A stretch of 64,000 nt of DNA, taken from contig NZ_CP060010.1 in NCBI RefSeq assembly GCF_017798205.1, positions 1,798,001 through 1,862,000 on the forward strand, read 5' to 3'. Of this stretch, positions 1,283 to 15,073 are shown piece after piece. The stretch comes from Cognatishimia activa (GTDB lineage Bacteria; Pseudomonadota; Alphaproteobacteria; Rhodobacterales; Rhodobacteraceae). Position 1 is the first letter of the stretch. Each line of letters starts with the position of its first letter. The position numbers and the translations under genes were made by a program. The notes under the pieces are model-generated. The model was not told where the DNA came from and did no database searches. It saw only the letters and a program-made list of their open reading frames with translations.

Positions 1283-1611
1283 CGCGATTAACCGCAGAGT
1301 TCTGGGTGAGCGCCTATCTCAACCGGCTGCGCCTTTACGAGATCCCGGCCTTTGTGGTGACCCATGGTGACGACACGGCTGGGGCGGTTTTGGTCAAACT
1401 GAACACGCTAGACGGCAATGCCAAGGCTTTTCAACGCAGCTTTGATCTTATGAGCGGCGAACGCGCCTGGATGGTTCTGGCCGAGGGTGCCGAGTCTGAT
1501 GTCGACGCGGCATTGGCCAAGCAGCGCAGCTTTGATCCGGATCTTTGGGTGATTGAGGTCGAAGATCGGCAAGGTCGGCACCTTCTCGATGAACCGGGGC
1601 TGGCTGACTGA
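1279..1611 (+). CDS. DUF1491 family protein
   Basis: A 110-residue cytoplasmic protein without signal peptide or membrane segment. It starts MTRLTAEFWVSAYLNRL and contains AGAVLVKLNTLDG and a RSFDPDLWVIEVEDRQGRHL C-terminal stretch, the pattern I associate with DUF1491, a small family found mainly in alphaproteobacteria. No biochemical function is known to me. Its ATG overlaps the era stop codon, and it lies between era and recO, so it is probably co-transcribed with ribosome-maturation and repair genes. Family assignment is from recognised motifs. Confidence 0.8.
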   Translation: MTRLTAEFWVSAYLNRLRLYEIPAFVVTHGDDTAGAVLVKLNTLDGNAKAFQRSFDLMSGERAWMVLAEGAESDVDAALAKQRSFDPDLWVIEVEDRQGRHLLDEPGLAD

Positions 1612-1621
1612 CCGTCGGAAA

Positions 1622-1681
1622 ATGAGTATTTTTGGCCAGATGAAGATCCCGCGTCCTTTCATCTTGCTCTAAATACTCAAA
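1622..1681. repeat. Dispersed palindromic intergenic element, copy 1
   Basis: An imperfect inverted repeat fills the gap between the DUF1491 gene and recO. The left arm begins GAGTATTTTTGGCCAGATGA and the right arm ends TTCATCTTGCTCTAAATACTC. The arms match over GAGTATTT and AGATGAA, separated by about 12 bases. Related sequence occurs at 21299-21352 (both arms), 38428-38450 and 46717-46740 (single arms). All copies sit immediately after stop codons, so a role in 3' end formation or as a small non-autonomous repeat is likely. This is inference. Confidence 0.6.
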
Positions 1682-1732
1682 TCCCACTGCGGCCACTGGC
1701 GCAGGCCTTTGCGTTCTGCGCATATTGACGCC

Positions 1733-2461
1733 ATGGATTGGCGAGATCAGGGCATCATTTTATCTACGCGCAAGCACGGCGAGACCTCGGTGATCCTTGA
1801 GGTCTTTACGCCCATGCACGGTCGTCATGCAGGCGTTGTGCGGGGGGGCGTGAGCCGAAAGATGACTCCGATCCTGCAGCCCGGCGGGCAAGTCGATTTG
1901 CATTGGCGCGCGCGGCTTCAGGAACATATCGGATCGTTTTCCGTGGAACCTTTGCGCAGCCGGGCTGATGCTCTGAGTGACCGATTGGCGCTGGCGGGGC
2001 TTAATGCGGTGACGGCGCTGCTTGGCTTTGCTTTGCCAGAACGCGAGCCCCATGAGGCGCTTTATGCGCGCACCGAGCCTTTGTTGGATCTTTTGGGGCA
2101 GAACGATCTTTGGCCTCTGGCCTATCTGCGTTGGGAAATGGCGCTGCTCGAGGATCTGGGCTACGGGCTGGATCTGGGCAGCTGCGCTGTGACGGGGACA
2201 ACGGAAAACCTGATTTTTATCTCACCCAAGTCGGGGCGCGCCGTGTCCAAACAGGGGGCCGGAGATTGGGCGGATCGGCTTTTGCCCCTTGTACCATGCC
2301 TCAAAGGGCAAGGGGACAGCAGCGATCAGGCCATACTAGAGGCCCTCTATGTCACCGGGTATTTTCTTGAGCACAAGCTGGCCGCCAGCCTCGGCAACCG
2401 CCCACTGCCTGAGGCACGTGCTCGGTTTGTGGATCGGTTCAGCCGCCAGATTGCGCGGTGA
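1733..2461 (+). CDS. recO: DNA repair protein RecO
   Basis: A 242-residue protein of normal RecO length. The N-terminus [18 protein letters not shown] forms the OB-fold, with the family-typical [11 protein letters not shown] and [14 protein letters not shown] strands. The helical part carries [19 protein letters not shown], followed by CAVTG and SPKSGRAVS, where many RecO proteins hold a zinc site; here the zinc cysteines look degenerate. RecO loads RecA on single-stranded DNA in the RecFOR pathway. I chose the ATG at 1733 because the family begins MDWRDQG; an in-frame start at 1709 would add eight unlikely residues. The 3' end overlaps the convergent lipoprotein gene by 23 bases. Confidence 0.95.
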
Positions 2462-2834
2462 AGACCATCTCGCCGCCTTGGTCGTTAGACAAGATCAACA
2501 CGTCGCCTGCGATCTCGACAAGGGTCATGCCATTGAGCGCCGTAAAGAAAATCTGTTCTTGATCCAAATCTGCGCAGGCTGCACGGGTCGCGCGTAAAGC
2601 TGAAAGCGAAAACCATGGGTAGGGCGAGGTTTGCTCTGCCGAGAAGCTGTTACAGGGCGCTTTTCCGCTGACAGAGCCCTCGGCCGGGAACATCATTGTC
2701 GCGCTCGCGGGGTAGGTTGCGCCGTCAACGCTGCGCAGAATCCATGTTTTGTCGGCGGCACCGTAGCCGGTCAAAGTTTCATCTGCCTGGCAGGCTACAA
2801 GGCAAATCGACAACGCTGGAACAAAAAGCTTCAT
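2439..2834 (-). CDS. META (HslJ-like) domain lipoprotein
   Basis: A 131-residue protein with a lipoprotein signal peptide: [15 protein letters not shown], with LVAC as the lipobox and Cys15 as the lipidated residue. The mature part carries a META/HslJ-type fold, with [20 protein letters not shown] and APCNSF strands and a long [19 protein letters not shown] segment. META-domain proteins are periplasmic or outer-membrane lipoproteins linked to heat shock or export in other bacteria; the function here is unknown. The start overlaps the stop of the upstream TetR gene by four bases, so the two are one transcript. The 3' end overlaps recO convergently. Confidence 0.75.
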
Positions 2835-3388
2835 GCCTCTTCGTATAGGGCAAGAATGAGGTCGACCAAAGTCACAAGACTCTGACCAGAGACCTCGGGC
2901 TGTTGTTTCGCGAGCAGTCCGAGACCCAAGTGGCTTGCATAGATCAGATGAGCCAGTTCGGCATTCGTGAGATCTATCTCGGTAAGCAGGTCTTTGATCA
3001 GTTCCAGGCGCTGTGCGTCGATGCGTTTGATCGTTTCACGAGCCAGTACGCTTTCTTGCGCCCAGGACCGCAGTGCGGCTTCGGTGCCCGGTGTGTTCAA
3101 CCCTGTTCCGGTTTCTGCGTTGATCTCGGTCACAAGGCGCAGCTTGCTGACGGCTTTGGCGTCGAGTTCACGCAAAGCCTGCAGTTTCGCGGTCGCATGG
3201 GTTTCCCAAGCCAGAAGCAGCGCTTCGTGAAAGGTCGGGACGTCTTTGAAGTGCCAGTAAAACGAACCCTTGGTGGTGTCGAGGTCCCGCGCCAAAGTCT
3301 CAGCGCGCAGCATGCTGGGACCTTTTGAGGTCAGCGCCGCAACACCTGCGGCGATCCAGTCCTGTGGAGAGAGACGATTCTTGGCCAT
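2831..3388 (-). CDS. TetR family transcriptional regulator
   Basis: A 185-residue regulator. The N-terminal helix-turn-helix is clear: RAETLARDLDTTKGSFYWHF at about residues 28-47, the canonical TetR recognition helix with the KGSFYWHFKD signature. The C-terminal ligand/dimer domain (about 60-185) is helical and not diagnostic of a ligand. The gene is translationally coupled to the META lipoprotein. A perfect 14-base palindrome lies 39 bases upstream of its start (3427-3440) and could be its own operator. It is in line with mcd, which ends 90 bases upstream, but there is no evidence that it controls mcd. Confidence 0.88.
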   Translation of the reverse strand: MAKNRLSPQDWIAAGVAALTSKGPSMLRAETLARDLDTTKGSFYWHFKDVPTFHEALLLAWETHATAKLQALRELDAKAVSKLRLVTEINAETGTGLNTPGTEAALRSWAQESVLARETIKRIDAQRLELIKDLLTEIDLTNAELAHLIYASHLGLGLLAKQQPEVSGQSLVTLVDLILALYEEA

Positions 3389-3426
3389 GCTTTAGGGATA
3401 AGTGCTCTTTGCACCTGCAGCAAGGC

Positions 3427-3440
3427 TCGTAGTACTACGA
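3427..3440. promoter_or_regulatory. Perfect palindrome, candidate TetR operator
   Basis: TCGTAGTACTACGA is a perfect 14-base palindrome placed 39 bases upstream of the TetR start codon, between the TetR gene and mcd. TetR proteins usually bind palindromes of 14-20 bases next to their own promoter. Assignment to this regulator rests on position only. Confidence 0.4.
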
Positions 3441-3468
3441 CCCGCGCATCAGCGGTGTGATGCGCGGG
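3441..3468 (-). terminator. Strong stem-loop after mcd
   Basis: CCCGCGCATCA pairs perfectly with TGATGCGCGGG around a six-base loop, giving an 11-bp GC-rich stem ten bases beyond the mcd stop codon. No T-run follows on the mcd strand, so it may be a Rho-dependent or mRNA-stabilising hairpin, not a classical intrinsic terminator. Confidence 0.45.
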
Positions 3469-3478
3469 ACTGTGTCTA

Positions 3479-5164
3479 TTATCCCAGCAAACGGCGGGCG
3501 ATCACCTGCGCCTGGATCTCGGCCGCGCCCTCAAAGATATTGAGGATGCGGGCGTCACAAAGGATCCGGCTGATGGTGTATTCCAGCGCAAAACCGTTGC
3601 CGCCGTGGATCTGCAGACCATTGTCCGCGGCAGCCCAAGCCACACGCGCGCCCAGGAGTTTCGCCATGCCCGCTTCTAGGTCGCAGCGGCGGTCGTTGTC
3701 TTTTTCCCAAGCCGAGAAATAAGTCAGCTGGCGCGCGATCATGATTTCCACTGCCATCATCGCCAGTTTGCCGGCAACCCGTGGGAATTCGATCAAAGAT
3801 TTGCCGAATTGTTTGCGGTCGATTGCGTATTGCATCGAGACATCCAGCGCCGATTGCGCCACGCCAACAGCGCGGGCTGCGGTCTGGATGCGCGCGCTCT
3901 CAAAGGTCTGCATGAGCTGCTTAAAGCCCTGACCTTCTTCGCCACCCAAAAGGTTCTCGCCTTTGACCTTAAAGCCATCAAAGCTGAGTTCGTATTCCTT
4001 CATGCCGCGATAGCCGAGAACTTCGATCTCTGTTCCGGTCATGCCTTCGGTTGGGAAGGGGTTTTCGTCGGTGCCAGGCGTTTTCTCGGCGATGAACATT
4101 GAGAGGCCGGTGTGGTTGATGGTGTCAGGCTTGGTGCGCGCCAGAAGGGTCATGATCTGAGTGCGGGCGGCGTGGGTGATCCAGGTTTTGTTACCGGTGA
4201 TCTCCCAATCGTCGCCGTTCTTCACAGCGCGTGTGCGCAGGGAACCGAGGTCGGACCCTGTGTTTGGCTCAGTAAACACAGCGGTTGGCAGCACTTCGCC
4301 GCTGGCCAATTTCGGCAGCCAATGTTGTTTTTGCTCTTCGGTGCCGCCACAAAGGATCAGCTCGCAGGCGATCTCTGGCCGTGTGCCCAGAGACCCCACA
4401 CCGATATAGCCGCGCGAAAGTTCCTCGGTCACAACCGCCATCGAGGCCTTGGACATGCCAAAGCCACCGTATTCCTCGGGCAGGGTCAGGCCAAAGACGC
4501 CCATATCTGCCAGTTCCTGGATGGTTTCCAGCGGGATCAGCTCGTCCTTGAGGTGCCATTCGTGGGCATGGGGCAGGACTTTTTCGACCGTGTAGCGGCG
4601 GAATTGCTCGCGGATCATTTCGAGCTCTTCGTCCAGACCCGAACCGCCGACGGTGAGGTTGGCCGATTGTTCTTGCATCAGCTCAACCAGACGCAGACGC
4701 GCGGCTTGGCTGTTGCCTTGGTCACAGAGCGTCATGACCGCTGGGATCATCAACCCGCGCATTTCGTCCTGTGTCAGACCCATGTCCTGCAGGCGGATGA
4801 TCTCGCCCTGGCTCATGGGGATGCCGCCATAGATCTGCCAGAGGTATTCGCCGAAAGCGATCTGGTGGATCAGCTGTTCAATCTCGCCGAATTTGCCCTC
4901 GGACTGCAGCTTCTCCGCCCAGCCTTGCATTTGTTTGAGCGATTGCGCGTAGGTCGCAAGCCACGCCAGCGCATGGGCGGCGGTCTGGTTTTCCTCGATT
5001 TTGCCGCCAGAGACGCGGCCTTCGACCGTGACCATCCCGCGCAGTTTTTCGGTTGCGGTGTCGACCAATGCATCCACCGGGGCAAGCGCCGCGCCGGTCA
5101 GATCCAGAAGATCAGAAATCAATGCAGATTGGGTCATGTCGAGGTCCTGTCCGTCGTGCGCCAT
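3479..5164 (-). CDS. mcd: (2S)-methylsuccinyl-CoA dehydrogenase (long acyl-CoA dehydrogenase)
   Basis: A 561-residue flavoprotein, about 160 residues longer at the N-terminus than ordinary acyl-CoA dehydrogenases. The extension contains HALAWLATYAQSLKQMQGWA and FGEYLWQIYGGIPMSQGEI, which I recognise as typical of methylsuccinyl-CoA dehydrogenase of the ethylmalonyl-CoA pathway. The catalytic core follows, with LPEEYGGFGMS, FTEPNTGSDLGSLRT (FAD/substrate loop) and the C-terminal QIHGGNGF and IFEGAAEIQ motifs. Mcd oxidises methylsuccinyl-CoA to mesaconyl-CoA and passes electrons to ETF; etfAB lie at about 49-50 kb. An AAAGGA site precedes the ATG at 5164; a second in-frame ATG nine codons in is possible. 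General acyl-CoA dehydrogenase is the fallback call. Confidence 0.85.
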   Translation of the reverse strand: MAHDGQDLDMTQSALISDLLDLTGAALAPVDALVDTATEKLRGMVTVEGRVSGGKIEENQTAAHALAWLATYAQSLKQMQGWAEKLQSEGKFGEIEQLIHQIAFGEYLWQIYGGIPMSQGEIIRLQDMGLTQDEMRGLMIPAVMTLCDQGNSQAARLRLVELMQEQSANLTVGGSGLDEELEMIREQFRRYTVEKVLPHAHEWHLKDELIPLETIQELADMGVFGLTLPEEYGGFGMSKASMAVVTEELSRGYIGVGSLGTRPEIACELILCGGTEEQKQHWLPKLASGEVLPTAVFTEPNTGSDLGSLRTRAVKNGDDWEITGNKTWITHAARTQIMTLLARTKPDTINHTGLSMFIAEKTPGTDENPFPTEGMTGTEIEVLGYRGMKEYELSFDGFKVKGENLLGGEEGQGFKQLMQTFESARIQTAARAVGVAQSALDVSMQYAIDRKQFGKSLIEFPRVAGKLAMMAVEIMIARQLTYFSAWEKDNDRRCDLEAGMAKLLGARVAWAAADNGLQIHGGNGFALEYTISRILCDARILNIFEGAAEIQAQVIARRLLG

Positions 5165-5286
5165 GAATCATATCCTTTGTTATGCTGCAGTGTGACATAT
5201 CTATTATGCATCTGCAGCGCAATTAAAATACGTCAAGAGCATTAAATGAATAAAAATGTTACGCGACGAAATTTTGCACCTTCCCT

Positions 5287-8200
5287 TTAGAGATCGACTT
5301 TCAACACGCCGCCCGGGTCTTTGGCGCGGGATTGGCAGAGGATGATCTGGCTTTCGCGTTGCTTGTTGGAAAGCACGAAATCGCGATGCTCGGCCTCGCC
5401 CTCAAGCAAGCCGCATTTGCAGACGCCGCAGATGCCGTCAGAGCATTTCACATCCACATGAACTCCGTTTTCAGCCAAGACATCTGTGGCGACACGGTCG
5501 GCGGGCACGAGGATCTGACGCCCGTCGTTCAGTTCCAGCGTGAAATCATGGTTTTCATAATCGGGCTGCTCTGGAACGTTGAAATATTCCAGATGCCGCG
5601 CCTCTTCCGGGAACCCTTGGCGCTCGGCCGCTTGCATCACGCCGTCCATGAAGCGATCCGGCCCGCAGGTATAAACGTGCCAGCCGTCCTGATGGTCCTT
5701 CAACACCGCATCCAGATCGGCGCGGGTGCCTTCGTCTGAGAAATGGAAATGGACTTTGTCGGCCCATGGGAACCCTGCGAGATCGTCAAGATATCCGGCC
5801 GAGGCGCGGCTGCTGCAGGAGTAATGCAGCGCGAAATCAGCCCCAAGTGCATGCAGTCGGTGCGCAAAGGCGATCATCGGCGTGATGCCGATGCCGCCGC
5901 CCATGAGGAAGGTTTTGGTGGCGGTTTCGTCCAGCTCAAAGTGGTTGATGGGTTTGCTGACAAAGACGCGGCGGCCTTCGGTAAAGATGCGATGCAGGAA
6001 CTTCGAGCCGCCACGGCCCTCGTCCTCACGCAACACGCCGATTTCATAGGTGCCGCGGTCGGCGGGGTTGCCGGACATTGAATATTGACGCAGGAACTCT
6101 GGCGCGACGACCACATCCAGATGCGCGCCTGCGGTCCATTCGGGCAGGGCACTGCCGTCAAAAGCGGTGAAGACGTACTTGGTGACGTCAGACGTCATCT
6201 TCTCGACCTTGGCGATTTTGGCCATGACGACGGGGCTGTCAGCGTCGATGGAAAAGCGGTGGATGTGGGCGGTTTCGCCCTGGGCGGATTTCGCTTTGTA
6301 GTCCTCCGCGGAAATCATCGCCTCATAGGCTTTGATGCCCGCCTCGCGGTCCATTGGGAACGGGTAGGGATGTGGGTGGGGCGCGAGCATGGCGGGGTAG
6401 ACCGCGAGCGTTTGATCTTCGTATTTCAGGTCCAGATCAGTCTGTAGGTCGCGGCGGTTCACGGGCTCATCCGTCGGATGATACCCTCCGTCTTCGCCGA
6501 GTTTCAGGTCCCACCACCATTTCTTGGTGTCATTCAGACCACCCCGTTTCATGCGGTCATCCAGCTTGGCGAGCATCGGCGCGGCGGAGGGGATATTGGA
6601 GGCAGCCCAGCGGAAAGGGGCCTCGGCAAAGAGGCCTTCGAGATTCCAGGGGCAGGTCTTCATGCAACGTCCGCACATGGCCCCGCCTGGGGTGGTGATG
6701 CGGTAAGTTGCGCATTTCTGGCTGTCGGATTTCCAGATCTCATAGCCGTTGAACATCAGTTTTGGGCCAGCCGTGATCGCGCCAGAGGGGCATTCGCGCG
6801 CGCATTTGTTGCAGTTCTCGCAGAAGTTCTGCAGGCCAAAGTCGATGGGTTTGTCGTGCGTCATTGGCATGTCAGTGGTGACGACGCCGGACTTGAGGCG
6901 CGGGCCGAGATATGGGTTCAGGATGACTTCGCCGATGCGCGAGACTTCTCCGAGGCCTGCGAGCAACAGTAAGGGGGGCTGGAGGACCTCGCCGTCCATC
7001 ACGGTGTGGGCTTTGGCCTGATAGCCGAGGTTGCGGATCTGTTTGGCGATAACGCCGCCCAAAAGTGAAAACCGCAGATAGGCGCGCATCGATTGGGCAA
7101 CGGCGATCCAGTCGTCGCCGGAAGAGCCCTCCATGGTCTCATAGCCCTGGTCGATGATCATCGAGATCGCTTGATCCTGCGTCGGATGGATCTCGGCCCC
7201 TGTGGCGTCGTGGCTGTACCAGGTCCAGTCGGGGCATTCGGAAATGCCGACGGCGTCGACGCCGAGGAAATAGCTGGCGGCCTTGATATTCGCGGCATTG
7301 CGCTGGGCGTCTGTGGGGCGGGAGCCGTCAGGATTGGCGGGGCCGTCTTGTAGCAGAACAAAGGCCCCCAGCGCGCGGCGTTGCGCGATCGAAGGCGCGG
7401 CCTTGCGGGCGTAGTAGCCACCCTTTGCATTGTCCTGCAGTGTTTTGCCCATGTCGCCGAACTGCGCGCGGGCGAACATGTCGGCGCGCTTGGGGACGCG
7501 GGCGACATTGGCGCGGTCGATATAGGTGGTTGGCTCATCGACGCGTTTCAGACGTTCGAATGGATGCGGGCCGTCGGCAAAGTTGCGTTTCTTATATGGG
7601 TCGCCGTTCAGAGCCCCCTTGGCGTGACCTTTGCCCAACCACCAGCCGGGGCCTTGGGTGGACCAATAGGGCTGGGCCTCCATAGGGGCGATGGGCACAT
7701 CGATGGTCAGATCAAGCGCGCAGGTGACCGCTGCGAGGCCGAAATTGCGGCCGATCCAGGGGGCCGCAATGCCGTCCCCGTCGACGTAGCCGAGACCCGC
7801 AGCGACAGCGAGCGTGTTGAGGTCTACGTCCGAGGCAGTGGCGGAATGGGATTTGGCCGAGACGCCAAGAATGCGCAGGTAGTTCCCAATAACACTGGCG
7901 GTTTCATTGGCGCGCAGGGCGGCGCGGTGGTGGAGCGCATCCTTGAGCCAGTCCACGCCCGGTTCCTCGCGGATATCGCGGGGGTTTTCATAGAGGAAAA
8001 CGATGGCGTGCGTATGGGTGTCAATGCTGCTGGGTTTGGCTTCTATACTGTCGCGCAGATCGGCCATGATGGCGTCGATGCCAGCCGCCAGAGTCTTGGT
8101 CTGGCGGGTGCGCAGGTCCTCAGAGAGGCGCGCGACGCCGGGGTTCACGCGGGTCTCGGAAAGATGTGCTTCACTTGGCAGGCGGCAGATCCCCACCATA

Positions 8201-8493
8201 GAAGCGTCGTTGAAATAGCCAAAAGATTTCAAGTGGTTCGCGCGCTCTTCAGGGTCCGTTGGGATACCGCTTTTGGCAGGGTTCACCAAGCCATCACGCA
8301 GGGCGTCAAGCATAGCTTGGTATTCGTCCATCGCGTTTACGATGCTCTCGGGCATGTCAGGGCGCACGAAGGACAGGGGCTTCATCGCGGGGATTTTGGC
8401 GAGGTTCGCGGCCTCGACCCTCGTCAGTTTTTCAAGCGGATAGGGCCCCAGATGGACGGGCCGTTTCTTGTCAGAGAAAAACCGAACCGTCAT
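5287..8493 (-). CDS. Self-sufficient (catabolic-type) reductive dehalogenase fused to a flavin/2Fe-2S reductase
   Basis: A 1068-residue soluble fusion with no Tat signal. Residues about 1-720 form a reductive dehalogenase-like cobalamin domain followed by two 4Fe-4S sites: C558, C561, C564, C568 (CENCNKCARECP) and C594, C607, C610, C614 (ending CGRCMKTCPW). Residues about 750-970 form a ferredoxin-reductase module with the RQYSMSG flavin motif, GGGIGITPM nucleotide motif and YTCGP. The C-terminus is a plant-type 2Fe-2S ferredoxin with C1017, C1022, C1025 and C1053. This matches BhbA/NpRdhA-type aerobic dehalogenases, which remove halogen from halogenated phenols using NAD(P)H. Y426 and K484 or K494 are candidate catalytic residues by analogy. 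Substrate unknown; no adjacent membrane anchor (RdhB). The ATG has an AAGGA site. Confidence 0.85.
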   Translation of the reverse strand: MTVRFFSDKKRPVHLGPYPLEKLTRVEAANLAKIPAMKPLSFVRPDMPESIVNAMDEYQAMLDALRDGLVNPAKSGIPTDPEERANHLKSFGYFNDASMVGICRLPSEAHLSETRVNPGVARLSEDLRTRQTKTLAAGIDAIMADLRDSIEAKPSSIDTHTHAIVFLYENPRDIREEPGVDWLKDALHHRAALRANETASVIGNYLRILGVSAKSHSATASDVDLNTLAVAAGLGYVDGDGIAAPWIGRNFGLAAVTCALDLTIDVPIAPMEAQPYWSTQGPGWWLGKGHAKGALNGDPYKKRNFADGPHPFERLKRVDEPTTYIDRANVARVPKRADMFARAQFGDMGKTLQDNAKGGYYARKAAPSIAQRRALGAFVLLQDGPANPDGSRPTDAQRNAANIKAASYFLGVDAVGISECPDWTWYSHDATGAEIHPTQDQAISMIIDQGYETMEGSSGDDWIAVAQSMRAYLRFSLLGGVIAKQIRNLGYQAKAHTVMDGEVLQPPLLLLAGLGEVSRIGEVILNPYLGPRLKSGVVTTDMPMTHDKPIDFGLQNFCENCNKCARECPSGAITAGPKLMFNGYEIWKSDSQKCATYRITTPGGAMCGRCMKTCPWNLEGLFAEAPFRWAASNIPSAAPMLAKLDDRMKRGGLNDTKKWWWDLKLGEDGGYHPTDEPVNRRDLQTDLDLKYEDQTLAVYPAMLAPHPHPYPFPMDREAGIKAYEAMISAEDYKAKSAQGETAHIHRFSIDADSPVVMAKIAKVEKMTSDVTKYVFTAFDGSALPEWTAGAHLDVVVAPEFLRQYSMSGNPADRGTYEIGVLREDEGRGGSKFLHRIFTEGRRVFVSKPINHFELDETATKTFLMGGGIGITPMIAFAHRLHALGADFALHYSCSSRASAGYLDDLAGFPWADKVHFHFSDEGTRADLDAVLKDHQDGWHVYTCGPDRFMDGVMQAAERQGFPEEARHLEYFNVPEQPDYENHDFTLELNDGRQILVPADRVATDVLAENGVHVDVKCSDGICGVCKCGLLEGEAEHRDFVLSNKQRESQIILCQSRAKDPGGVLKVDL

Positions 8494-8591
8494 GCCGCAT
8501 ATCCTTCTTCACTGGCCGCACGCCATGGTTGCGTCGGCTCCGCTACAAGGAGGACTGTAGTGGAAAATTAACGGTTTAATAGACCCTTTGG

Positions 8592-9932
8592 TCAAAAGTT
8601 CTGGTGATGATCCACTGGCAGCCCGCTTGGCACCGTTTCAGGCACGACCGACGCCTGTGCTGCGGCTTTCTCGCCCGTGAGAGCGCCAAGAAACGCGACC
8701 AACGCGTCGATATCGTCTTCGCTCACCTGTTTGAGCGCGATATCCAGAACGCCTGCCTGCCGCGCCATTTCGAACCGGTCGTTTTGGATCATGAAGTCAG
8801 CGGCGCGGAACCAAGGCACGTCGGGCAAAACCAGATCGCTGCGTTGCCATGTGGCGCGCCCCTTTTCCGGGTTCATGTGATGGCGCACCATTGCCTCAAG
8901 TGTCGGGTAGGCGCCGTTGTGGCCGTAGGGACCGGTCAAAGCAACATTGCGCAGCATGGGTGTGCGGAACCGGTAAGCGTCGGCCAGGCTGTCGCTTTCC
9001 CCCATACGGCCGACATCGCGGTTGATCAGGTCGAATTTTCGGGTGCGTCCGGGGCCAAAGGCAGGCAGGCCGAGAGCGTGGAACCCTTGGTCCGACAGCA
9101 GGCTACCAACGTGGCAGTTTGAGCAACCGGCCGTGCCGAAGAAGAGCTCCATGCCCTCGCGCTGCAAGCTATTCAAAGCGGTGGAATCACCCGCGAGATA
9201 GGCGTCAAAGGGGCTGTCGAAACTGGTGAAGTCTTGGATAATAAAGGCAGAAATCGCATTTGCAATTTCGACCATCGTAACGTCCTCAGCCGTGTCGATG
9301 TTGTCATAGGCAGCCACAAAAGCCGCGCCATAGGCCGGGATTGTCCGCACACGTTTCGCAAGAATTGGCCAGACATTGTCGATCCGGTCAAATCGCGCGC
9401 CGACGACTTCGTTCTCGCCGGTATTGCCTGCCATTTCGATCTTGGAGGTCACGGGGAACATGGCTTGCGCCGCGAGGATGGTCTCAAGCCCCATGGGCAG
9501 CCATTCTTCGGCGGGCGTGTCAAAGCCGTTTCCGTAAATGTCGTCAACGCTGATACGGCCATCATGCATCACAACATCGATGTCTTTGTGGCCCAGATTC
9601 CAAAGCGCGGGTGCATTGCGTGGCACGCGCCGGATGACGGGGTTTTCACCGGTTTCGGACACGCGTTTCGGACCCAATCCGACCCCACCTTCGCCGAGTC
9701 CCAACGACAACCCATCTGAGGTTCCAAATGCCGGATGATGACAAGTTCCACAGCTAATATTTCTGTTCCCCGACAATATTTTATCGTAAAATAACAGCCG
9801 ACCGATCTCGGCCTTTTCTGGCGAGTGGGGGAGGAAATCTGACGCGGTCAGAGGCTCTGGAAGATCTGAGGAAAAAACCGGGCCTGCCAGAAGGGCTGAC
9901 AGCGTAATTGGGAGTAGACGATGAAGAAACAT
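8592..9932 (-). CDS. Dihaem cytochrome c peroxidase / MauG-like protein
   Basis: A 446-residue exported protein. Residues 1-21 (MFLHRLLPITLSALLAGPVF) are a signal peptide. Two haem-binding CxxCH motifs are present, CGTCHH at residues 61-66 and CSNCHV at 270-275, as in the bacterial CcpA/MauG superfamily. TPMLRNVALTGPYGHNGAYP near the C-terminus is also family-typical. Such periplasmic proteins reduce hydrogen peroxide or carry out oxidative protein modification; the sequence alone does not separate the two. The open frame extends well beyond 9932, but the signal peptide fixes the start there, 12 bases inside the divergent Sel1 gene. It lies upstream of and in line with the dehalogenase, 98 bases away. 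Confidence 0.85.
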   Translation of the reverse strand: MFLHRLLPITLSALLAGPVFSSDLPEPLTASDFLPHSPEKAEIGRLLFYDKILSGNRNISCGTCHHPAFGTSDGLSLGLGEGGVGLGPKRVSETGENPVIRRVPRNAPALWNLGHKDIDVVMHDGRISVDDIYGNGFDTPAEEWLPMGLETILAAQAMFPVTSKIEMAGNTGENEVVGARFDRIDNVWPILAKRVRTIPAYGAAFVAAYDNIDTAEDVTMVEIANAISAFIIQDFTSFDSPFDAYLAGDSTALNSLQREGMELFFGTAGCSNCHVGSLLSDQGFHALGLPAFGPGRTRKFDLINRDVGRMGESDSLADAYRFRTPMLRNVALTGPYGHNGAYPTLEAMVRHHMNPEKGRATWQRSDLVLPDVPWFRAADFMIQNDRFEMARQAGVLDIALKQVSEDDIDALVAFLGALTGEKAAAQASVVPETVPSGLPVDHHQNF

Positions 9933-10391
9933 GTGCTTGCTTTGATGCTTTTGGCGGGACCCGCTTTTGCCGATCTGGAGACCGCGCGGGACCTGATGGA
10001 AGCGGGCGAGTTTGAAGCGGCGCGCGAGATGTTCTTGCCATTGGCGCGCTCTGGGAATGCGGACGCCGAGGAATTGATCGGCGTTATGTATGCGATGGGT
10101 CTTGGTGTTGAGCGCGACGATCAGCGGGCGTTTGAATGGTATCTGCGAAGCTCGCTTAAAGGACATCCCGGCGCGCAATCCGGTATCGGATGGTACTACG
10201 AGATCGGTCGCGGCATGCCCGCGCCGGATTTGGTGCGCGCTTATATGTGGTACACTTTGTCCGCCATCGGCGGCGATCCCGACGCGGCGATTAGCCTTGA
10301 AGAGGTGGTCAAAAAGATGACCCAAGCTGAGATCGATAAAGCGCATATACTCGTCGAAGATTACAGAAGTTGGATGTACCCGCTTCGTTAA
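9921..10391 (+). CDS. Sel1-repeat protein, secreted
   Basis: A 156-residue protein with a clear signal peptide (MKKHVLALMLLAGPAFA) followed by TPR-like Sel1 repeats: AEELIGVMYAMGLGVERDDQ, RAFEWYLRSSLKGHPGAQSG and AYMWYTLSAIGGDPDAA. Sel1 proteins are protein-interaction scaffolds; no specific partner is evident. A GGGAG ribosome site lies six bases before the ATG. The start overlaps the start of the divergent MauG-like gene by 12 bases, so each promoter must lie inside the other gene. A strong terminator follows 22 bases after the stop. Confidence 0.85.
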   Translation: MKKHVLALMLLAGPAFADLETARDLMEAGEFEAAREMFLPLARSGNADAEELIGVMYAMGLGVERDDQRAFEWYLRSSLKGHPGAQSGIGWYYEIGRGMPAPDLVRAYMWYTLSAIGGDPDAAISLEEVVKKMTQAEIDKAHILVEDYRSWMYPLR

Positions 10392-10413
10392 TTCTTTACG
10401 AAAAAGCCTTCAT

Positions 10414-10449
10414 GTACAGGCAAATATGCGTGTTTGCCTGTACTTTTTT
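10414..10449 (+). terminator. Intrinsic terminator after the Sel1 gene
   Basis: GTACAGGCAAA pairs perfectly with TTTGCCTGTAC around an 8-base loop (11-bp stem) and is followed by TTTTTT. A run of A before the stem may also let it end the convergent dioxygenase transcript. Confidence 0.9.
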
Positions 10450-10452
10450 CAC

Positions 10453-11172
10453 TTACGCAGCGACCGAGTTCCCAACCTTCTTCGCGTAGCGTTTTGGTTT
10501 GCCGGTTTCCGGGTCAATAATGGTCTCAACCGAGTACTGGCAGATGTATGCACGACGCGGTTTGTCGGTGGTGTTTGGCCCGGACCGATGCAAAGTTTCT
10601 GACGAGAAGGCGACGATCGTGCCAGCGGGGCACGTCATGGCCTTGCCGGGATCTTCGCCGGAATATCCGTTGAGCTCGTTGCTTTCCTCAAGCCATTCAT
10701 GAGGGTCGAGTCCCGGAGACTCATTAAGATTCCTTGGCAAAACATAGACGCAGCCGTTTTCTTCGGTCGTGTCATCAAGGGCGATCCAAATCGTCAGATA
10801 GGCTTTGTGATCAAACCCCACATAGGCGCCATCCTGATGCCACGCAAAGCTGGCACCGGTGCCCGATCCCTTAACCACGAACTGTTCATTAAACAGCGTG
10901 CCAGAATCGCCAAGGCAAGTTTCATTGATCTTTGCGATTGTGTTGCCCAGCAGAAAGGCCTCGAGTTCGGGAAACTCTTCGTGGCGGTGTGCAAGAAACC
11001 GGCGCGCGGATCCCAGACCGATTTTATGTTTGCCGCTGTGCCCGCCGTCGTCGATTGGTTCGTCCAATAGTGTCTGACAGCTTTGAAGCAGCATTGACAG
11101 CTCGGCGTCGGACAATGCGCTGGGGAAAACCGCGTATCCGTTTTCGCGAAATGACTGATGTGTAGTGTTCAT
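10453..11172 (-). CDS. Phytanoyl-CoA dioxygenase (PhyH) family Fe(II)/2-oxoglutarate oxygenase
   Basis: About 239 residues. The Fe(II) facial triad is visible (numbering from the first Met): H113 and D115 in AWHQDGAYVG and H196 in SSETLHRSGPN, with R208 in PRRAY as a candidate 2-oxoglutarate ligand. The whole length fits the PhyH fold, whose members hydroxylate small molecules such as phytanoyl-CoA or ectoine. The substrate cannot be read from sequence. Two adjacent ATG codons begin the gene; GAGGAG is better spaced from the second (11172), and the first is at 11175. It is divergent from an AraC regulator 80 bases away, a probable regulator-target pair. Confidence 0.82.
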   Translation of the reverse strand: MNTTHQSFRENGYAVFPSALSDAELSMLLQSCQTLLDEPIDDGGHSGKHKIGLGSARRFLAHRHEEFPELEAFLLGNTIAKINETCLGDSGTLFNEQFVVKGSGTGASFAWHQDGAYVGFDHKAYLTIWIALDDTTEENGCVYVLPRNLNESPGLDPHEWLEESNELNGYSGEDPGKAMTCPAGTIVAFSSETLHRSGPNTTDKPRRAYICQYSVETIIDPETGKPKRYAKKVGNSVAA

Positions 11173-11252
11173 CATGTTTCTCCTCTCTCATATTGCAAAA
11201 TAGCGCACGAATTTGATTGTTCTTTGCGAATTTAACCAATTACATTGCATTT

Positions 11253-12107
11253 ATGGTCGATATTGCCGCACACCCGCTTATCGTTGTTGAACCAGGAGCT
11301 GCGATTTGGAAGCGCTCCGATCAGCCGGGCCATGCTTTCCGTCCGCAACGCCACGCTGAGCTTGTGGTTCTCTTGGCGACGGCTGGACACGCCAGCTATT
11401 TCATCGACGGAAATATAGTAGATTTGACGTCAGGCACGTTGCTCTGGGCGCTTGCGGGGCAGGCGCATTTCCTGATGCAAGATTCCAGTGATTTTGACAT
11501 GTGGGTGCTGTTGATCTCTGACCGAGTTCTGACCAATGAGCTGCGCAAGTCTCCTCTATTTCCGCCTTTGACGAAAGATGATCGCGGAGGGGCGCAGTTT
11601 GCGCGCGTACTAAGTGGCGCAGATTTGGACGCATTGACGAGATTGGCCGGTCTGGTGAAAGAGACAGCGGATCCCGAGGCGCAAAGGGTTGGCTTTCAAT
11701 GGTGGATGACGCGCGCCTGGACTGCTTGGCAAAATGCGTCGACGGGAAAACGGCGCGCTGTGCATCCTGCCGTGGATCAAGCCGTTTTATCGATAGAGAC
11801 GGATGTGACCAAAAGCTGGGAGGAGGTTTGCAAACCTATCCCGCTCAGCCCAGGTCGCCTGGCGCGATTGTTTAAACAGCAGACCGGGCAATCACCTTTG
11901 GAATTTCGCAATGAGCGGCGGTTACAGCGGGTAGACGATCTTATGAACTTGACCAACCCGCCGGACTTGTTGACGGCCTGTCTTGATGTCGGCTTCGGCA
12001 GTTACTCTCAGTTTTTTCGCGTCTTTCGAGACCTTAGAAATATGTCGCCCCGAAGCTATTATGCTCCGGGGCGACACGAGATTTTGTCAAAAGATGTGAA
12101 CGATTAG
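11253..12107 (+). CDS. AraC family transcriptional regulator
   Basis: A 284-residue protein with an N-terminal cupin-like sensing domain (about 1-130, with FRPQRHAELVVLLATAGHAS and FLMQDSSDFDMWVL) and a C-terminal AraC DNA-binding domain. The domain carries PLSPGRLARLFKQQTGQSPL and the final helix-turn-helix LDVGFGSYSQFFRVFRDL followed by MSPRSYY. I chose the ATG at 11253; the frame can extend to a TTG at 11217 that overlaps the promoter region. The direct repeat CGAATTT at 11208 and 11227 in the divergent gap could be half-sites. It probably controls the adjacent PhyH oxygenase. Its stop overlaps the convergent dctP stop by four bases. Confidence 0.88.
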   Translation: MVDIAAHPLIVVEPGAAIWKRSDQPGHAFRPQRHAELVVLLATAGHASYFIDGNIVDLTSGTLLWALAGQAHFLMQDSSDFDMWVLLISDRVLTNELRKSPLFPPLTKDDRGGAQFARVLSGADLDALTRLAGLVKETADPEAQRVGFQWWMTRAWTAWQNASTGKRRAVHPAVDQAVLSIETDVTKSWEEVCKPIPLSPGRLARLFKQQTGQSPLEFRNERRLQRVDDLMNLTNPPDLLTACLDVGFGSYSQFFRVFRDLRNMSPRSYYAPGRHEILSKDVND

Positions 12108-13162
12108 TTCAGGTCTTTTGCACGTCCTCCGTTGATGTCTGCTTCTGCTTCAGCAACAGCTGCGGTCAGAGCGTCAAAGATTTTCTCGCCACCCTGAACG
12201 TTCTCTTTGAACCAGTCGTAAACAGGTGCCGCAGCGTCTTTGAAAGCAGCTTTCTCTGCTGGGGTTGGAACGTAAAGGTCACCACCACCGGCAACAAAGT
12301 CAGAGTATGCCTGAATGGACTTACGCTTAGGAGATGCGAAAGTCGCCTGTTGCAGTGCGTAGAAGCCGTCAACAATAACAGTTTTCAGATCATCTGGCAT
12401 GCCCATGAAGGTTTCGTTGTTCATCCACCACAGCGCACCCATGTAGGCGTGGCCGTCGAGAGTCACATACTGCAGACCCGCATCTGGGAATTTCATGCCC
12501 ATGATGTCGGTGATGCCGTTTTTGGACCCTTCAACAACGCCGGTCTGGAAAGAGGTGAAGAGCTCTGGCCATGGGATAGGCGTTGGGGATGCACCCAGTG
12601 CACGCACCAGTTCCTGCGGCAGGTCGGCCACAACAGTCCGGATTTTCAGGCCTTCCATGTCGGAAGGATTCTGAATGCGGCGCTGCGTGTTTGCGAAGTT
12701 ACGCCAGCCGCCGGTGTTGCCGATGGTCATCAGGCGGATGGTTCCACCGGAGTCTTCCAACGCCATGTCACGCATGGTGCGTGTGAAATCGCCAGACATG
12801 ACGTGCTCTGCAACACGGTCGTCCGCCATCAGGTAAGGCAGGTCGAGAACCTGAACATATGGGAACAGGCCTGCTGCACCACCGGAGGTCGAGATGTTGA
12901 TGTCGATGGTGCCATCAGAAACACCCTGCAGACATTCCGCACCGTTGGAGCACAGCTGAGTACCGATGAACAGTTCGACTTCAATCGCGCCGTTGGATGC
13001 GGCTTCGACATAGTTTTTAAAGACGATCAGACCGTCATAGTCTTCGTCGTTTTCGTTGGAGTTGGCTGTTGCACGCAGCTTGTAGTCTGCGGCCGTCGCC
13101 GTCATCGCGGTGCCTGCCAAAAGGGCAGAGACAGCGATCGTTTTGATCATAGTTTTGAGCAT
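12104..13162 (-). CDS. dctP: TRAP transporter substrate-binding protein (DctP family)
   Basis: A 352-residue periplasmic solute-binding protein. The signal peptide MLKTMIKTIAVSALLAGTAM ends around ATAADYKLRA. Family motifs include the KIRTVVADLPQELVRALGAS segment, with the Arg that usually binds a ligand carboxylate, and WPELFTSFQTGVVEGSKNG. I chose the ATG at 13162 because GGGAGGT lies six bases upstream; the open frame extends five codons further. It is the last gene of the six-gene operon starting with the SsuD-like monooxygenase, so its ligand is probably the sulfonated or otherwise acidic substrate of that enzyme. This substrate link is inference. Confidence 0.9.
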   Translation of the reverse strand: MLKTMIKTIAVSALLAGTAMTATAADYKLRATANSNENDEDYDGLIVFKNYVEAASNGAIEVELFIGTQLCSNGAECLQGVSDGTIDINISTSGGAAGLFPYVQVLDLPYLMADDRVAEHVMSGDFTRTMRDMALEDSGGTIRLMTIGNTGGWRNFANTQRRIQNPSDMEGLKIRTVVADLPQELVRALGASPTPIPWPELFTSFQTGVVEGSKNGITDIMGMKFPDAGLQYVTLDGHAYMGALWWMNNETFMGMPDDLKTVIVDGFYALQQATFASPKRKSIQAYSDFVAGGGDLYVPTPAEKAAFKDAAAPVYDWFKENVQGGEKIFDALTAAVAEAEADINGGRAKDLN

Positions 13163-13193
13163 ATAGTTACCTCCCATGAGCTCGAAGTACTTG

Positions 13194-14483
13194 TTAATTC
13201 AGAAAGCCGGTCAGACGCGGAACAGTCAGCGAAATCGCGGGTACAAAAGTGATCAAAAAGATCACGAAGATTTCCACCGCAAGGAAAGGCAGGATCGCCT
13301 TTGCAATGGTGGCCACCTTTTCTCGGGACACCGCCGCGGCCACGAACAACACGAGCCCCATGGGCGGTGTGGCGAGGCCAACGGTCAGGTTAACGGACAT
13401 GATGATCGCAAAGTGGATCGGCTCGACGCCAAGGCCCAGGAAGACGGGGCCGAGGATTGGGCCTAGGATGATGATCGCAGGGCCTGCATCGAGGAACATA
13501 CCCACAACGAACAGAAGAAGGTTGATAAGGAACAACAGAAGCAGCGGGTTCTCGGTGAGCGTCAGGATCCATTGCGCCAAGAGCTCCGGTGCGTGGCTCA
13601 GGCTGACGACGGTTTTGAACGACATCGCCGCGCCAACCAGCAAAAGGACAACCGCAGAGGTGATGCCCGCGCGGGTCAGAACGTCTGGCAGCTCACGGAA
13701 CTTCAGCGTGTTCAGAACAAAGAGCCCGATGACCAGCGCATAGGCAACGGCAACGGCTGCGGCCTCAGTCGGGGTAAAGACACCACCGAGGATGCCGCCC
13801 AGAATGATGACAGGTGTCATCAGCGGGAAGAAGGCTTTCAGAGACGCCTGACCCCGTGCTTTCCAGGTGTATTTCTCTGTGGCGACTGGGAAGTCATAGC
13901 GGTCGGCCATGACCTTGATCATCAGCATAAGGCCAACGCCGACGAGGATGCCGGGCACAATGCCTGCAAGGAACAGAGCGGCGACGCTTTCGCCCATCAC
14001 ATAGGCATAGATGATCATAATGCCTGACGGCGGAATGATCGGACCGATGACCGAGCTCGCAGCGGTGATCGCCGCTGCGAAACGGGTGGTGTAGCCCTGT
14101 TTCTCCATCGCGGGGATCAGCATGGAGCCAAGCGCCGAGGTGTCTGCCACTGCAGAGCCTGACAGCCCTGCAAAGAGCATAGAAGACAGGACGTTGACGT
14201 GGGCAAGGCCTCCGCGGAAGTGACCCATGAGGGCCTGGGCGAATTCGACCAGACGCAGGGTGATGCCACCGCGGTTCATAAGCTCTCCGGCCAGCATAAA
14301 GAAGGGGATCGCCATCAGCGGGAAGCTGTCCATACCGTTGTAGAGGTTACGGTATAGCAGCGTGATATCCCGTTCCTGAGCGGCCAGCCACAAAAGCGCG
14401 CCGGGGGCTGCCAAGAGGCAGAAGAACACCGGCAGGCCGATCAGGAGGAGGAAAAGAAAGACGGGTAGGAACCAGAGCAACAT
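13194..14483 (-). CDS. dctM: TRAP transporter large permease (DctM family)
   Basis: A 429-residue integral membrane protein with about 12 hydrophobic segments. The N-terminus MLLWFLPVFLFLLLIGLPVF and motifs PFFMLAGELMNRGG, GSAVADTSALGSMLIPAM and IIPPSGIMIIYAYV are characteristic of the DctM ion-transporter domain, which drives solute uptake with a sodium gradient. The start codon overlaps the DctQ stop by one base (TAATG), so the two are translationally coupled. DctP follows 31 bases downstream. Together these form a complete tripartite importer in the monooxygenase operon. Confidence 0.95.
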   Translation of the reverse strand: MLLWFLPVFLFLLLIGLPVFFCLLAAPGALLWLAAQERDITLLYRNLYNGMDSFPLMAIPFFMLAGELMNRGGITLRLVEFAQALMGHFRGGLAHVNVLSSMLFAGLSGSAVADTSALGSMLIPAMEKQGYTTRFAAAITAASSVIGPIIPPSGIMIIYAYVMGESVAALFLAGIVPGILVGVGLMLMIKVMADRYDFPVATEKYTWKARGQASLKAFFPLMTPVIILGGILGGVFTPTEAAAVAVAYALVIGLFVLNTLKFRELPDVLTRAGITSAVVLLLVGAAMSFKTVVSLSHAPELLAQWILTLTENPLLLLFLINLLLFVVGMFLDAGPAIIILGPILGPVFLGLGVEPIHFAIIMSVNLTVGLATPPMGLVLFVAAAVSREKVATIAKAILPFLAVEIFVIFLITFVPAISLTVPRLTGFLN

Positions 14484-15073
14484 TATTCAGCACCTCCAGA
14501 CACAGGGCCGCCAATGACGGGCAGGCTCTCGCCTCCGCCAAAGAGAGAAATCACACGACGCAGGATCAGCTCGACATTGACGAGGATCAAAAGCACGACG
14601 CCGACGAACAAGGACAACATCATCCAGCTGCGCGGCACGCGGTACCATTCGTCAAAGCCAAGTGAGGTTGGGACATAGAGCGACGCCGTTGCAAAGCGAC
14701 CGCCGAGGCCGTTGACCTCTTTCCAGCCAATCTGGACGGCAAAGATAAGCACGACCAGACAGACCACCAAAAGGATGATCTGCAAGAGTTGCAGGGCTTT
14801 GGAGGGCAAGAGCGAGTCAATCACATCAATCGCCACAAAGCCTCCGCTACGGAAGGCTGTGGGTGCCATGAGGCCGGTCATCCAAAGCATACAGAACCGC
14901 GCGGCCTCATCAGGCCAGGGCAGCGCGTTGTTGAGGATGTATCGGAAAAAGACCTGGATCAGGATGGCAACAACCATCGCCGCAACAGCGACAACGCCGA
15001 TGCCACGACCAATGCGCAGCAAGAGGTCGTTGATCACCTTTAACACCGTGGCCAAGGCCAGCAAGAAACTCAT
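14483..15073 (-). CDS. dctQ: TRAP transporter small permease (DctQ family)
   Basis: A 196-residue membrane protein with four predicted transmembrane helices, including VVAVAAMVVAILIQVFFRYI and LLQIILLVVCLVVLIFAVQI. The motif LPWPDEAARFCMLWM is typical of DctQ. The start at 15073 is supported by a GGGAGGT site. The frame stays open upstream to 15229, but that part would overlap the flavin reductase gene. The gene is 40 bases downstream of the flavin reductase and coupled to dctM, so the transporter is part of the same transcript as the three enzymes. Confidence 0.92.
   Translation of the reverse strand: MSFLLALATVLKVINDLLLRIGRGIGVVAVAAMVVAILIQVFFRYILNNALPWPDEAARFCMLWMTGLMAPTAFRSGGFVAIDVIDSLLPSKALQLLQIILLVVCLVVLIFAVQIGWKEVNGLGGRFATASLYVPTSLGFDEWYRVPRSWMMLSLFVGVVLLILVNVELILRRVISLFGGGESLPVIGGPVSGGAE

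What the first reader, a model, noticed from the sequence alone, without database searches (positions are those of the whole stretch)
5287..8493. Soluble self-sufficient reductive dehalogenase in a marine alphaproteobacterium
Seen: one 1068-residue frame joins a reductive dehalogenase-like domain with two 4Fe-4S motifs (C558/561/564/568 and C594/607/610/614) to a flavin reductase (RQYSMSG, GGGIGITPM) and a 2Fe-2S ferredoxin (C1017, C1022, C1025, C1053). There is no Tat signal and no anchor gene. Known: catabolic enzymes of the BhbA/NpRdhA type have this layout and use NAD(P)H and cobalamin under oxic conditions. Inference: this organism can reduce halogenated phenols or similar marine haloorganics without a membrane electron chain.
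Basis: partly seen in the sequence, partly recalled or inferred. Interest (0 to 1): 0.82.

Follow-up and report, generated by a model that had tools for sequence, protein, structure and literature searches.

The report
Self-sufficient marine bromophenol-removing enzyme gene
This marine bacterium carries one gene for a large vitamin-B12 enzyme that very probably strips bromine or iodine from phenols using ordinary cellular reducing power; the enzyme type is already known and is common in its bacterial family, so the gene is a good new example rather than a new kind of thing.

Summary
In detail: window 5287-8493, on the MINUS strand, encodes one 1068-residue protein: a vestigial B12-domain copy, a reductive dehalogenase (RdhA) core with two 4Fe-4S motifs, and a phthalate-dioxygenase-reductase (PDOR) module with 2Fe-2S. 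It has no Tat motif and no room for an anchor gene. The gene is under strong purifying selection (dN/dS 0.022). QueG is a separate gene.

The class is published: BhbA, and JtRdhA from a marine relative, which uses NADPH on bromo- and iodophenols in air. So: a new member of a known kind.

Added here: 109 of 295 sampled family genomes (one per genus) hold a near-full-length homologue. The pocket round the second halogen differs from both NpRdhA and BhbA and is conserved. In its genus the gene was gained at least twice, once on a circular replicon. A MarR gene adjoins it in 14 of 80 loci; pobA lies near it more often than uniform placement predicts, and nitrilase-family genes in two relatives. 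That points to bromo-4-hydroxybenzoate-type substrates. No assay could be run.

The parts
5287..8493 (-). rdhA: fused self-sufficient reductive dehalogenase, 1068 aa (P0001)
7504..8493 (-). residues 1-330: vestigial duplicate of the B12-binding RdhA domain; residues 62-269 align with residues 378-551 of the core (171 columns, 32% identity, E 1.4e-21)
   Evidence: profile-profile comparison of residues 1-330 with 331-640; duplication described for this class in PMC10463259
8023..8133 (-). about residues 121-157: stretch present in the four other reductase-fused members printed (BhbA, Nitratireductor OM-1, Aminobacter, L162) and absent from the unfused NpRdhA and L164; exact borders unsure, because residues 104-111 of NpRdhA were not in my row
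6274..7503 (-). residues 331-740: catalytic RdhA core (cobalamin site, two 4Fe-4S)
7078..7080 (-). Y472, predicted proton donor (NpRdhA Y426)
   Evidence: Y in 152 of 152 rows
6892..6894 (-). K534, partner of Y472 (NpRdhA K488)
   Evidence: K in 152 of 152 rows
6700..6702 (-). R598, predicted to bind the phenol hydroxyl (NpRdhA R552)
   Evidence: R in 152 of 152 rows
7099..7101 (-). V465 (NpRdhA A419, second-halogen pocket): clade-specific substitution
   Evidence: V in 132 of 152 rows; pocket role of A419 in PMC7565698
7000..7002 (-). V498 (NpRdhA N452): clade-specific substitution
   Evidence: V in 151 of 152 rows
6790..6822 (-). C558/C561/C564/C568: first 4Fe-4S motif
6652..6714 (-). C594/C607/C610/C614: second 4Fe-4S motif
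5290..6231 (-). residues 755-1068: PDOR module (flavin, NAD(P)H, 2Fe-2S)
   Evidence: (2PIA E 1.4e-52; 6KBH E 5e-59)
5335..5445 (-). C1017/C1022/C1025/C1053: 2Fe-2S ligands
8502..8509 (-). Shine-Dalgarno-like AAGAAGGA before the ATG
   Evidence: read by eye

Best explanation
The gene encodes a cytoplasmic, cobalamin-dependent, NAD(P)H-driven reductive dehalogenase of the self-sufficient catabolic class (BhbA/JtRdhA). NADPH gives a hydride to flavin in the C-terminal PDOR module; electrons pass one at a time through the 2Fe-2S and two 4Fe-4S clusters to base-off cobalamin. The phenolic hydroxyl of an ortho-bromo (or iodo) phenol is held by S468, K534 and R598, the halogen sits on cobalt, and Y472 donates the proton as the carbon-halogen bond breaks. 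The likely job is to turn bromo-4-hydroxybenzoate-like aromatics into 4-hydroxybenzoate-like products that the cell's PobA/protocatechuate route can use. Shown here: architecture, conservation of the residues, selection, presence of PobA, protocatechuate dioxygenase beta and CobN in the genome, and physical linkage to pobA in some relatives. Inferred: cofactors, electron path, NADPH, substrate, oxygen tolerance.
For: Full-length match to the BhbA plasmid gene, 49.4%, annotated there as WP_015585978, the BhbA accession in PMC10463259. NpRdhA is best by sequence and by fold. Six active-site residues kept: five in 152 of 152 rows, F340 in 151 with one gap (147 distinct sequences, three of them shortened). 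The 12 cluster cysteines are kept in every row covering them. dN/dS 0.022 against the 98%-identical sister, similar to the neighbouring acyl-CoA dehydrogenase gene at 0.026. Own genome: PobA over cut-off, protocatechuate dioxygenase beta over cut-off, CobN over cut-off with its parts added, separate QueG. pobA within 400 bases of rdhA in 3, and within 20 kb in 6, of 67 genomes where both places are listed (expected 0.07 within 2 kb and 0.69 within 20 kb); also near rdhA on Comamonas pBHB and Nitratireductor pOM-1. A fused enzyme of this class from a marine relative was shown by others to use NADPH on bromo- and iodophenols in air (PMC10463259).
Against: No activity, cofactor or expression data. 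In the window genome rdhA is about 370 kb from pobA, and its neighbours (a MauG-like protein, an acyl-CoA dehydrogenase that I take from memory to be the methylsuccinyl-CoA type, a TetR-like protein named by eye, no Pfam match) are not an aromatic pathway. Of the 67 genomes, 61 do not have pobA within 20 kb. The linkage was noticed in the output and tested afterwards. Five positions facing the ring and second halogen differ from NpRdhA, so the exact substrate may differ. The AlphaFold model is poor round the active site (mean pLDDT 69.9; under 50 at 501-531 and 564-619) and fits NpRdhA with an rmsd of about 9 A, so geometry was not tested. CobN alone does not prove a complete B12 pathway.
Confidence: 0.87

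Rival explanations
1. It is a reductive dehalogenase of this class, but its natural substrate is not a hydroxybenzoate: for example bromotyrosine-derived phenols or nitriles, hydroxyphenylacetates, or iodophenols; the window gene acts as a stand-alone detoxifier or salvage enzyme.
For: Gene order round rdhA is not conserved and its neighbours are mostly unrelated to each other; pocket residues differ from the two hydroxybenzoate enzymes NpRdhA and BhbA; two carbon-nitrogen hydrolase (nitrilase-family) genes lie beside rdhA in two relatives of the same genus; JtRdhA works about equally well on 3-bromo-4-hydroxyphenylacetate and 3,5-dibromo-4-hydroxybenzoate.
Against: The only catabolic gene whose linkage I tested against an expectation is pobA, and it is in excess; JtRdhA's best substrate is 3,5-dibromo-4-hydroxybenzoate.
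Confidence: 0.35
2. A respiratory (energy-conserving) reductive dehalogenase.
For: Same RDH family model; matches to PceA chains (4UQU E 1.3e-29).
Against: No Tat motif or N-terminal hydrophobic stretch; no space for rdhB in the 98- and 122-base gaps; fused PDOR module.
Confidence: 0.02
3. Not a dehalogenase: a QueG-like or other B12/FeS reductase.
For: Weak QueG match, 25.3 bits, residues 481-579.
Against: QueG cut-off is 200 bits; a true QueG (424.9 bits) is elsewhere in the genome; RDH is over its cut-off; NpRdhA active-site residues kept.
Confidence: 0.03
4. A decaying, non-functional copy.
For: Broken or split copies occur in relatives (G269 with an inner stop, G193 second place with two stops, G099 in two pieces).
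Against: Open frame, all ligands kept, dN/dS 0.022.
Confidence: 0.02

Closest known systems
JtRdhA, Jhaorihella thermophila (WP_104007082; PMC10463259)
   Same: By the paper: no Tat signal, duplicated B12 domain, two 4Fe-4S, fused PDOR, NpRdhA Y426/K488/R552 kept, an insert specific to the fused enzymes; a marine relative
BhbA, Comamonas sp. 7D-2 plasmid pBHB (WP_015585978)
   Same: Same full-length architecture, 50.2% identity over 1056 columns, same catalytic residues and cysteines
   Different: Pocket residues F/S/V/S/A against M/Y/A/V/V here; BhbA sits beside ligAB-type genes and a pobA-like stretch, this one does not
NpRdhA, Nitratireductor pacificus (4RAS, 6ZXU, 6ZXX)
   Same: RdhA core with vestigial domain, 42.5% identity over 661 columns, S422/M423/Y426/K488/R552/F291 kept
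   Different: The NpRdhA chain lacks the PDOR module and the stretch near residues 121-157; F290, F310, P311, A419, N452 are replaced here
Ros_A3X954, Roseobacter sp. MED193 (PMC13101508)
   Same: Marine roseobacter debrominase without Tat signal
   Different: Its RdhA domain and cluster motifs are given at residues 174-345, so it is laid out differently and seems a short form (my inference); it was reported oxygen-sensitive

Membership tests
Self-sufficient catabolic reductive dehalogenase (BhbA/JtRdhA class) | RdhA core with two 4Fe-4S motifs | tested here: met
   TIGR02486 196.7 bits over 160.35; cysteines
Self-sufficient catabolic reductive dehalogenase (BhbA/JtRdhA class) | Vestigial duplicate of the B12-binding domain | tested here: met
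   171 columns, E 1.4e-21
Self-sufficient catabolic reductive dehalogenase (BhbA/JtRdhA class) | C-terminal fused PDOR module with flavin, NAD(P)H and 2Fe-2S sites | tested here: met
   2PIA over residues 756-1062, E 1.4e-52; fold
Self-sufficient catabolic reductive dehalogenase (BhbA/JtRdhA class) | Catalytic Tyr-Lys and hydroxyl-binding Ser/Arg | tested here: met
   by alignment; not by structure
Self-sufficient catabolic reductive dehalogenase (BhbA/JtRdhA class) | No Tat signal, no anchor partner | tested here: met
Self-sufficient catabolic reductive dehalogenase (BhbA/JtRdhA class) | Active-site geometry over the corrin | tested here: inconclusive
   AlphaFold model under pLDDT 50 at 501-531 and 564-619
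Self-sufficient catabolic reductive dehalogenase (BhbA/JtRdhA class) | NADPH-driven dehalogenation of ortho-halophenols, oxygen tolerance | not testable with these tools
   needs an assay
Respiratory reductive dehalogenase (PceA type) | Tat signal and RdhB anchor | tested here: not met
Epoxyqueuosine reductase QueG | Score over the TIGR00276 cut-off | tested here: not met
   25.3 of 200 bits; true QueG elsewhere

The most novel reading that the evidence does not exclude
In the window's family this enzyme is a mobile, single-gene adaptor, held by over a third of sampled genera, that plugs the sea's natural bromo-aromatics (bromo-hydroxybenzoates, bromotyrosine-derived phenols and nitriles) into the ordinary 4-hydroxybenzoate/protocatechuate route under air. 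Its clade has its own pocket (M339, Y361, A/V362, V465, V498 in place of NpRdhA F290, F310, P311, A419, N452), and this pocket sets the bromine/iodine-only preference seen in JtRdhA. In two relatives of the same genus rdhA travels with two nitrilase-family genes, which would give a marine counterpart of the bromoxynil pathway.
Probability: 0.3. Interest if true: 0.55.

Novelty: new member of a known kind. Interest (0 to 1): 0.3.

Why it matters
Aerobic debromination by soluble B12 enzymes has, to my knowledge, been shown for only a few proteins, while fused homologues are common in this marine family (109 of 295 sampled genomes). A conserved clade-specific pocket and the linkage to pobA make the natural substrate and the bromine-over-chlorine preference testable with a handful of purified enzymes and point variants. 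If confirmed, a large share of coastal heterotrophs would take part in the oxic turnover of natural organobromine.

Tried and rejected
Respiratory RdhA: rejected (no Tat, no room for an anchor gene, fused reductase). QueG: rejected. Decayed gene: rejected.

A conserved operon round rdhA: of the 53 ORFs (real and spurious) of the window's rdhA region, searched against the 70 loci L032-L101, rdhA itself is found in 69, ORFs in other frames of rdhA in up to 52, the acyl-CoA dehydrogenase in 17 (median identity 32%, so mostly other members of that large family), and each other ORF in at most 8. On the other side of rdhA the order acyl-CoA dehydrogenase, tetR-like gene, META-type gene, recO, era is kept in all 7 other genus members examined (L213-L219), without rdhA. 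In 80 one-per-genus loci the commonest neighbour group is in 16, and only 3 of these within 2 kb. 28 of the first set (24 titled Ruegeria) have a xanthine-dehydrogenase-family operon downstream, which scores below every specific cut-off shown, so no function was drawn from it.

Pfam tally of nearest neighbours: MarR_2 in 12 of 141 scanned; of 137 proteins further away, MarR is not among the 25 families listed, whose lowest count is 2, so at most 2; against 2 the Fisher p is 0.011. pobA was not visible in that tally, because only one of the adjacent pairs (L170) was in the set.

Virus-borne copies: 18 candidate stretches in viral contigs, none confirmed, with only two short patterns searched. 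Structural check of the active site: the model is too weak there. CobN co-occurrence was looked at but not used: weak matches probably include magnesium chelatase (my inference), and some rdhA carriers (for example G005, G009, G027) have no CobN match. rdhA-pobA co-occurrence is 86 both, 23 rdhA only, 112 pobA only, 74 neither (Fisher p 0.0013), but it ignores kinship between genomes, so I give it little weight. The linkage test was made after the adjacency caught my eye in the output; it uses hand-copied places, a uniform-placement model with a 3.9 Mb genome, and 67 of 86 genomes (the pobA place of 19 was not listed; 12 of these 19 have a locus of up to 7 kb flanks in which pobA was not found).
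Full report
Observation. The frame exists exactly at 5287-8493 but on the minus strand: 1068 codons from ATG, with a Shine-Dalgarno-like sequence before it. The whole-genome search places the window in a single 3.25 Mb contig with one copy of the gene; the only other match is a weak one to the reductase part (E 1.6e-6). The nearest named record is the MAG Cognatishimia sp. DT_16 (98% over the full length; L032); by its coordinates it is the same genome as G298. I therefore call the genus Cognatishimia; the genome search itself gives no names.

What it is. NCBIfam gives the reductive dehalogenase model TIGR02486 at 196.7 bits (cut-off 160.35) and QueG at only 25.3 bits (cut-off 200). By sequence the best solved structures are NpRdhA (4RAS, E 2.1e-152) for the RdhA part, and CYP116B-type fusions and phthalate dioxygenase reductase (2PIA) for residues from about 755 to 1062. 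Foldseek on an AlphaFold model ranks the same structures first (14 NpRdhA chains, E 4.7e-50 to 4.4e-48, TM by target 0.70-0.72, rmsd 8.7-9.5 A; then 6LAA, 6KBH, 2PIA). The model itself is weak (32 aligned sequences, mean pLDDT 69.9, under 50 at 501-531 and 564-619), so I draw no geometry from it. A profile comparison of residues 1-330 with 331-640 finds the internal duplication that PMC10463259 describes for this class (171 columns, 32% identity, E 1.4e-21).

Active site. PMC7565698 (passages read) names the NpRdhA residues round the substrate. In an alignment of 157 rows I counted the 152 rows left after taking out NpRdhA, the unfused L164, BhbA, Nitratireductor OM-1 and the fragment L101. 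They are 147 distinct sequences, three of them shortened (L094, L179, L180), and a few genomes are in twice. S422, M423, Y426, K488 and R552 are the same in 152 of 152, and F291 in 151 with one gap; in this protein they are S468, M469, Y472, K534, R598 and F340. By contrast the residues facing the ring and second halogen have changed together: F290 to M339 (M in 135 of 152), F310 to Y361 (143), P311 to A362 (V 96, A 49), A419 to V465 (V 132, C 16) and N452 to V498 (151). BhbA has F, S, V, S, A there. The function of these changes is inference. A stretch near residues 121-157 is present in the fused proteins printed and absent from NpRdhA and the unfused L164, in line with the fusion-specific insert reported for JtRdhA.

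Is it alive? Against the sister DT_16, dN/dS is 0.022 for rdhA, 0.026 for the neighbouring acyl-CoA dehydrogenase gene, 0.087 for the MauG-like gene and 0.063 for the tetR-like gene (NG86). Catalytic residues and ligands are intact.

Supply and use. The genome has a CobN match over the cut-off when its two parts are added, a separate QueG (424.9 bits), PobA over its cut-off (700.5 bits, about 370 kb from rdhA) and protocatechuate dioxygenase beta over its cut-off (365.1 bits). So a debrominated 4-hydroxybenzoate could be used. A complete B12 pathway was not checked.

Distribution. In a sample of 295 genomes of the window's family, one per genus, 145 match at E 1e-50, but that includes genomes where only the reductase part matches; by hand count of the listed rows 109 of 295 have a fused homologue covering at least 1000 residues of the query (list). 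Broken or split copies occur too (G269, G099, second place in G193). The plasmid collection holds 8 records with a match over at least 80% of the protein, among them BhbA on Comamonas pBHB (49.4%), Nitratireductor pOM-1 (50.1%), Aminobacter (57.3%), Ruegeria sp. TM1040 (71.3%) and Jannaschia (69.0%). In the tree of 128 rows the window protein and DT_16 stand together, and BhbA with Nitratireductor OM-1 forms a separate, earlier branch (FastTree, rooted on NpRdhA and L164, whose branches are long).

Gain and movement. 5 of 9 genomes of the genus have the gene. Three of these (G296, G300, G301) carry a different lineage: they group together (99, local support) away from the window pair, and the genus label needs two changes on the tree. 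The acyl-CoA dehydrogenase gene beside rdhA in the window is in 9 of 9 genomes, but only the window's genome and G298 have rdhA beside it; the other seven loci show none within the 12 kb fetched on that side. In G300 the gene spans the ends of a 99 kb contig whose ends overlap by 77 bases, so it lies on a circular replicon. I read this as repeated horizontal gain.

Neighbours as clues. Gene order round rdhA is not conserved. Three signals stand out. First, a MarR-like gene lies directly beside rdhA (within about 100 bases) in 14 of 80 one-per-genus loci, one of them (L130) a weak match; it is also adjacent on the Aminobacter and Jannaschia plasmids. The window locus has none. Second, pobA: among 67 genomes with both genes and both places listed, it lies within 400 bases in 3 (G197, G073, G227) and within 20 kb in 6 (expected 0.07 within 2 kb and 0.69 within 20 kb under uniform placement, binomial p about 5e-5 and 7e-5; recounted). 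The other 61 do not have it within 20 kb, the window genome among them, and the test was made after I had noticed the adjacency. A pobA-like stretch also lies 2.3 kb from bhbA on pBHB (277 aligned residues) and pobA 3.4 kb from rdhA on pOM-1, with extradiol-dioxygenase genes annotated near both. Third, in two genus relatives (G301 and the G300 replicon) two carbon-nitrogen hydrolase genes lie 1.1-5.4 kb from rdhA; the G301 pair was confirmed with Pfam, together with an aldehyde dehydrogenase, an AraC-type regulator, a MarR-type regulator and a TRAP DctM gene. These were the only such loci among those searched (L032-L186, L213-L222). BhbA belongs to a bromoxynil route (PMC10463259); that this route starts with a nitrilase is recalled, and a natural brominated nitrile in the marine genomes is my inference.

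What is known. PMC10463259 (abstract with part of the introduction, Results part 1, substrate section, Discussion, cloning section and passages read) describes exactly this class in a marine relative, with NADPH-driven, tightly coupled debromination and deiodination, also under air, and no turnover of chlorinated analogues; it also lists a Ruegeria pomeroyi homologue. PMC13101508 (abstract, Results part 1 of 2, phylogeny section, Discussion) reports a marine roseobacter debrominase of another layout and says that putative bhbA homologues are widely distributed in the Roseobacter clade. The class and its spread in roseobacters are thus in print. In the listings of searches I saw no paper on the clade-specific pocket, the pobA linkage or the nitrilase-family pairs; but only titles and abstract openings of most hits were seen, 74 and 75 listed 12 of 354 and 15 of 59 papers, and none of these searches named pobA or nitrilase.

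Verdict. Real, functional-looking and correctly interpreted, but a new member of a known kind. The added value lies in the testable pocket signature and in the genome context that points to bromo-4-hydroxybenzoate-type substrates.

Noticed in passing
L221 (G301:C11) 1590-14651 and L222 (G300:C19): rdhA with two carbon-nitrogen hydrolase (nitrilase-family) genes; in L221 also an aldehyde dehydrogenase, an AraC-type and a MarR-type regulator and a TRAP DctM gene: a possible bromo-hydroxynitrile catabolic island, on a circular 99 kb replicon in G300.
   Followed up: partly
window 10453-12107: A PhyH-type dioxygenase gene and a divergent AraC-type regulator gene are present here but have no match in the sister locus L032, where the flanking genes are kept.
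   Followed up: no
window 8592-10346: MauG-like di-haem protein gene (Pfam CCP_MauG); best NCBIfam match is the His-Xaa-Ser system-associated MauG-like model, 231.7 bits, below its cut-off of 340.
   Followed up: no
L033 13308-16935 and 27 more loci (list): A xanthine-dehydrogenase-family operon directly follows rdhA, 24 of the 28 records titled Ruegeria; the large subunit's best model is 4-hydroxybenzoyl-CoA reductase alpha, 462.6 bits, below its cut-off of 994.55.
   Followed up: partly
L044 9178-9936: A fumarylacetoacetate-hydrolase-family gene lies directly upstream of rdhA in Shimia sagamensis; Pfam FAA_hydrolase was found in 2 of 141 nearest neighbours of the other set.
   Followed up: partly
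G000:C1:246141-249422 (L193, L194): The CobN match of the window's own genome comes in two parts with model positions 704-809 missing; many relatives in the list show a first part ending near position 700.
   Followed up: no
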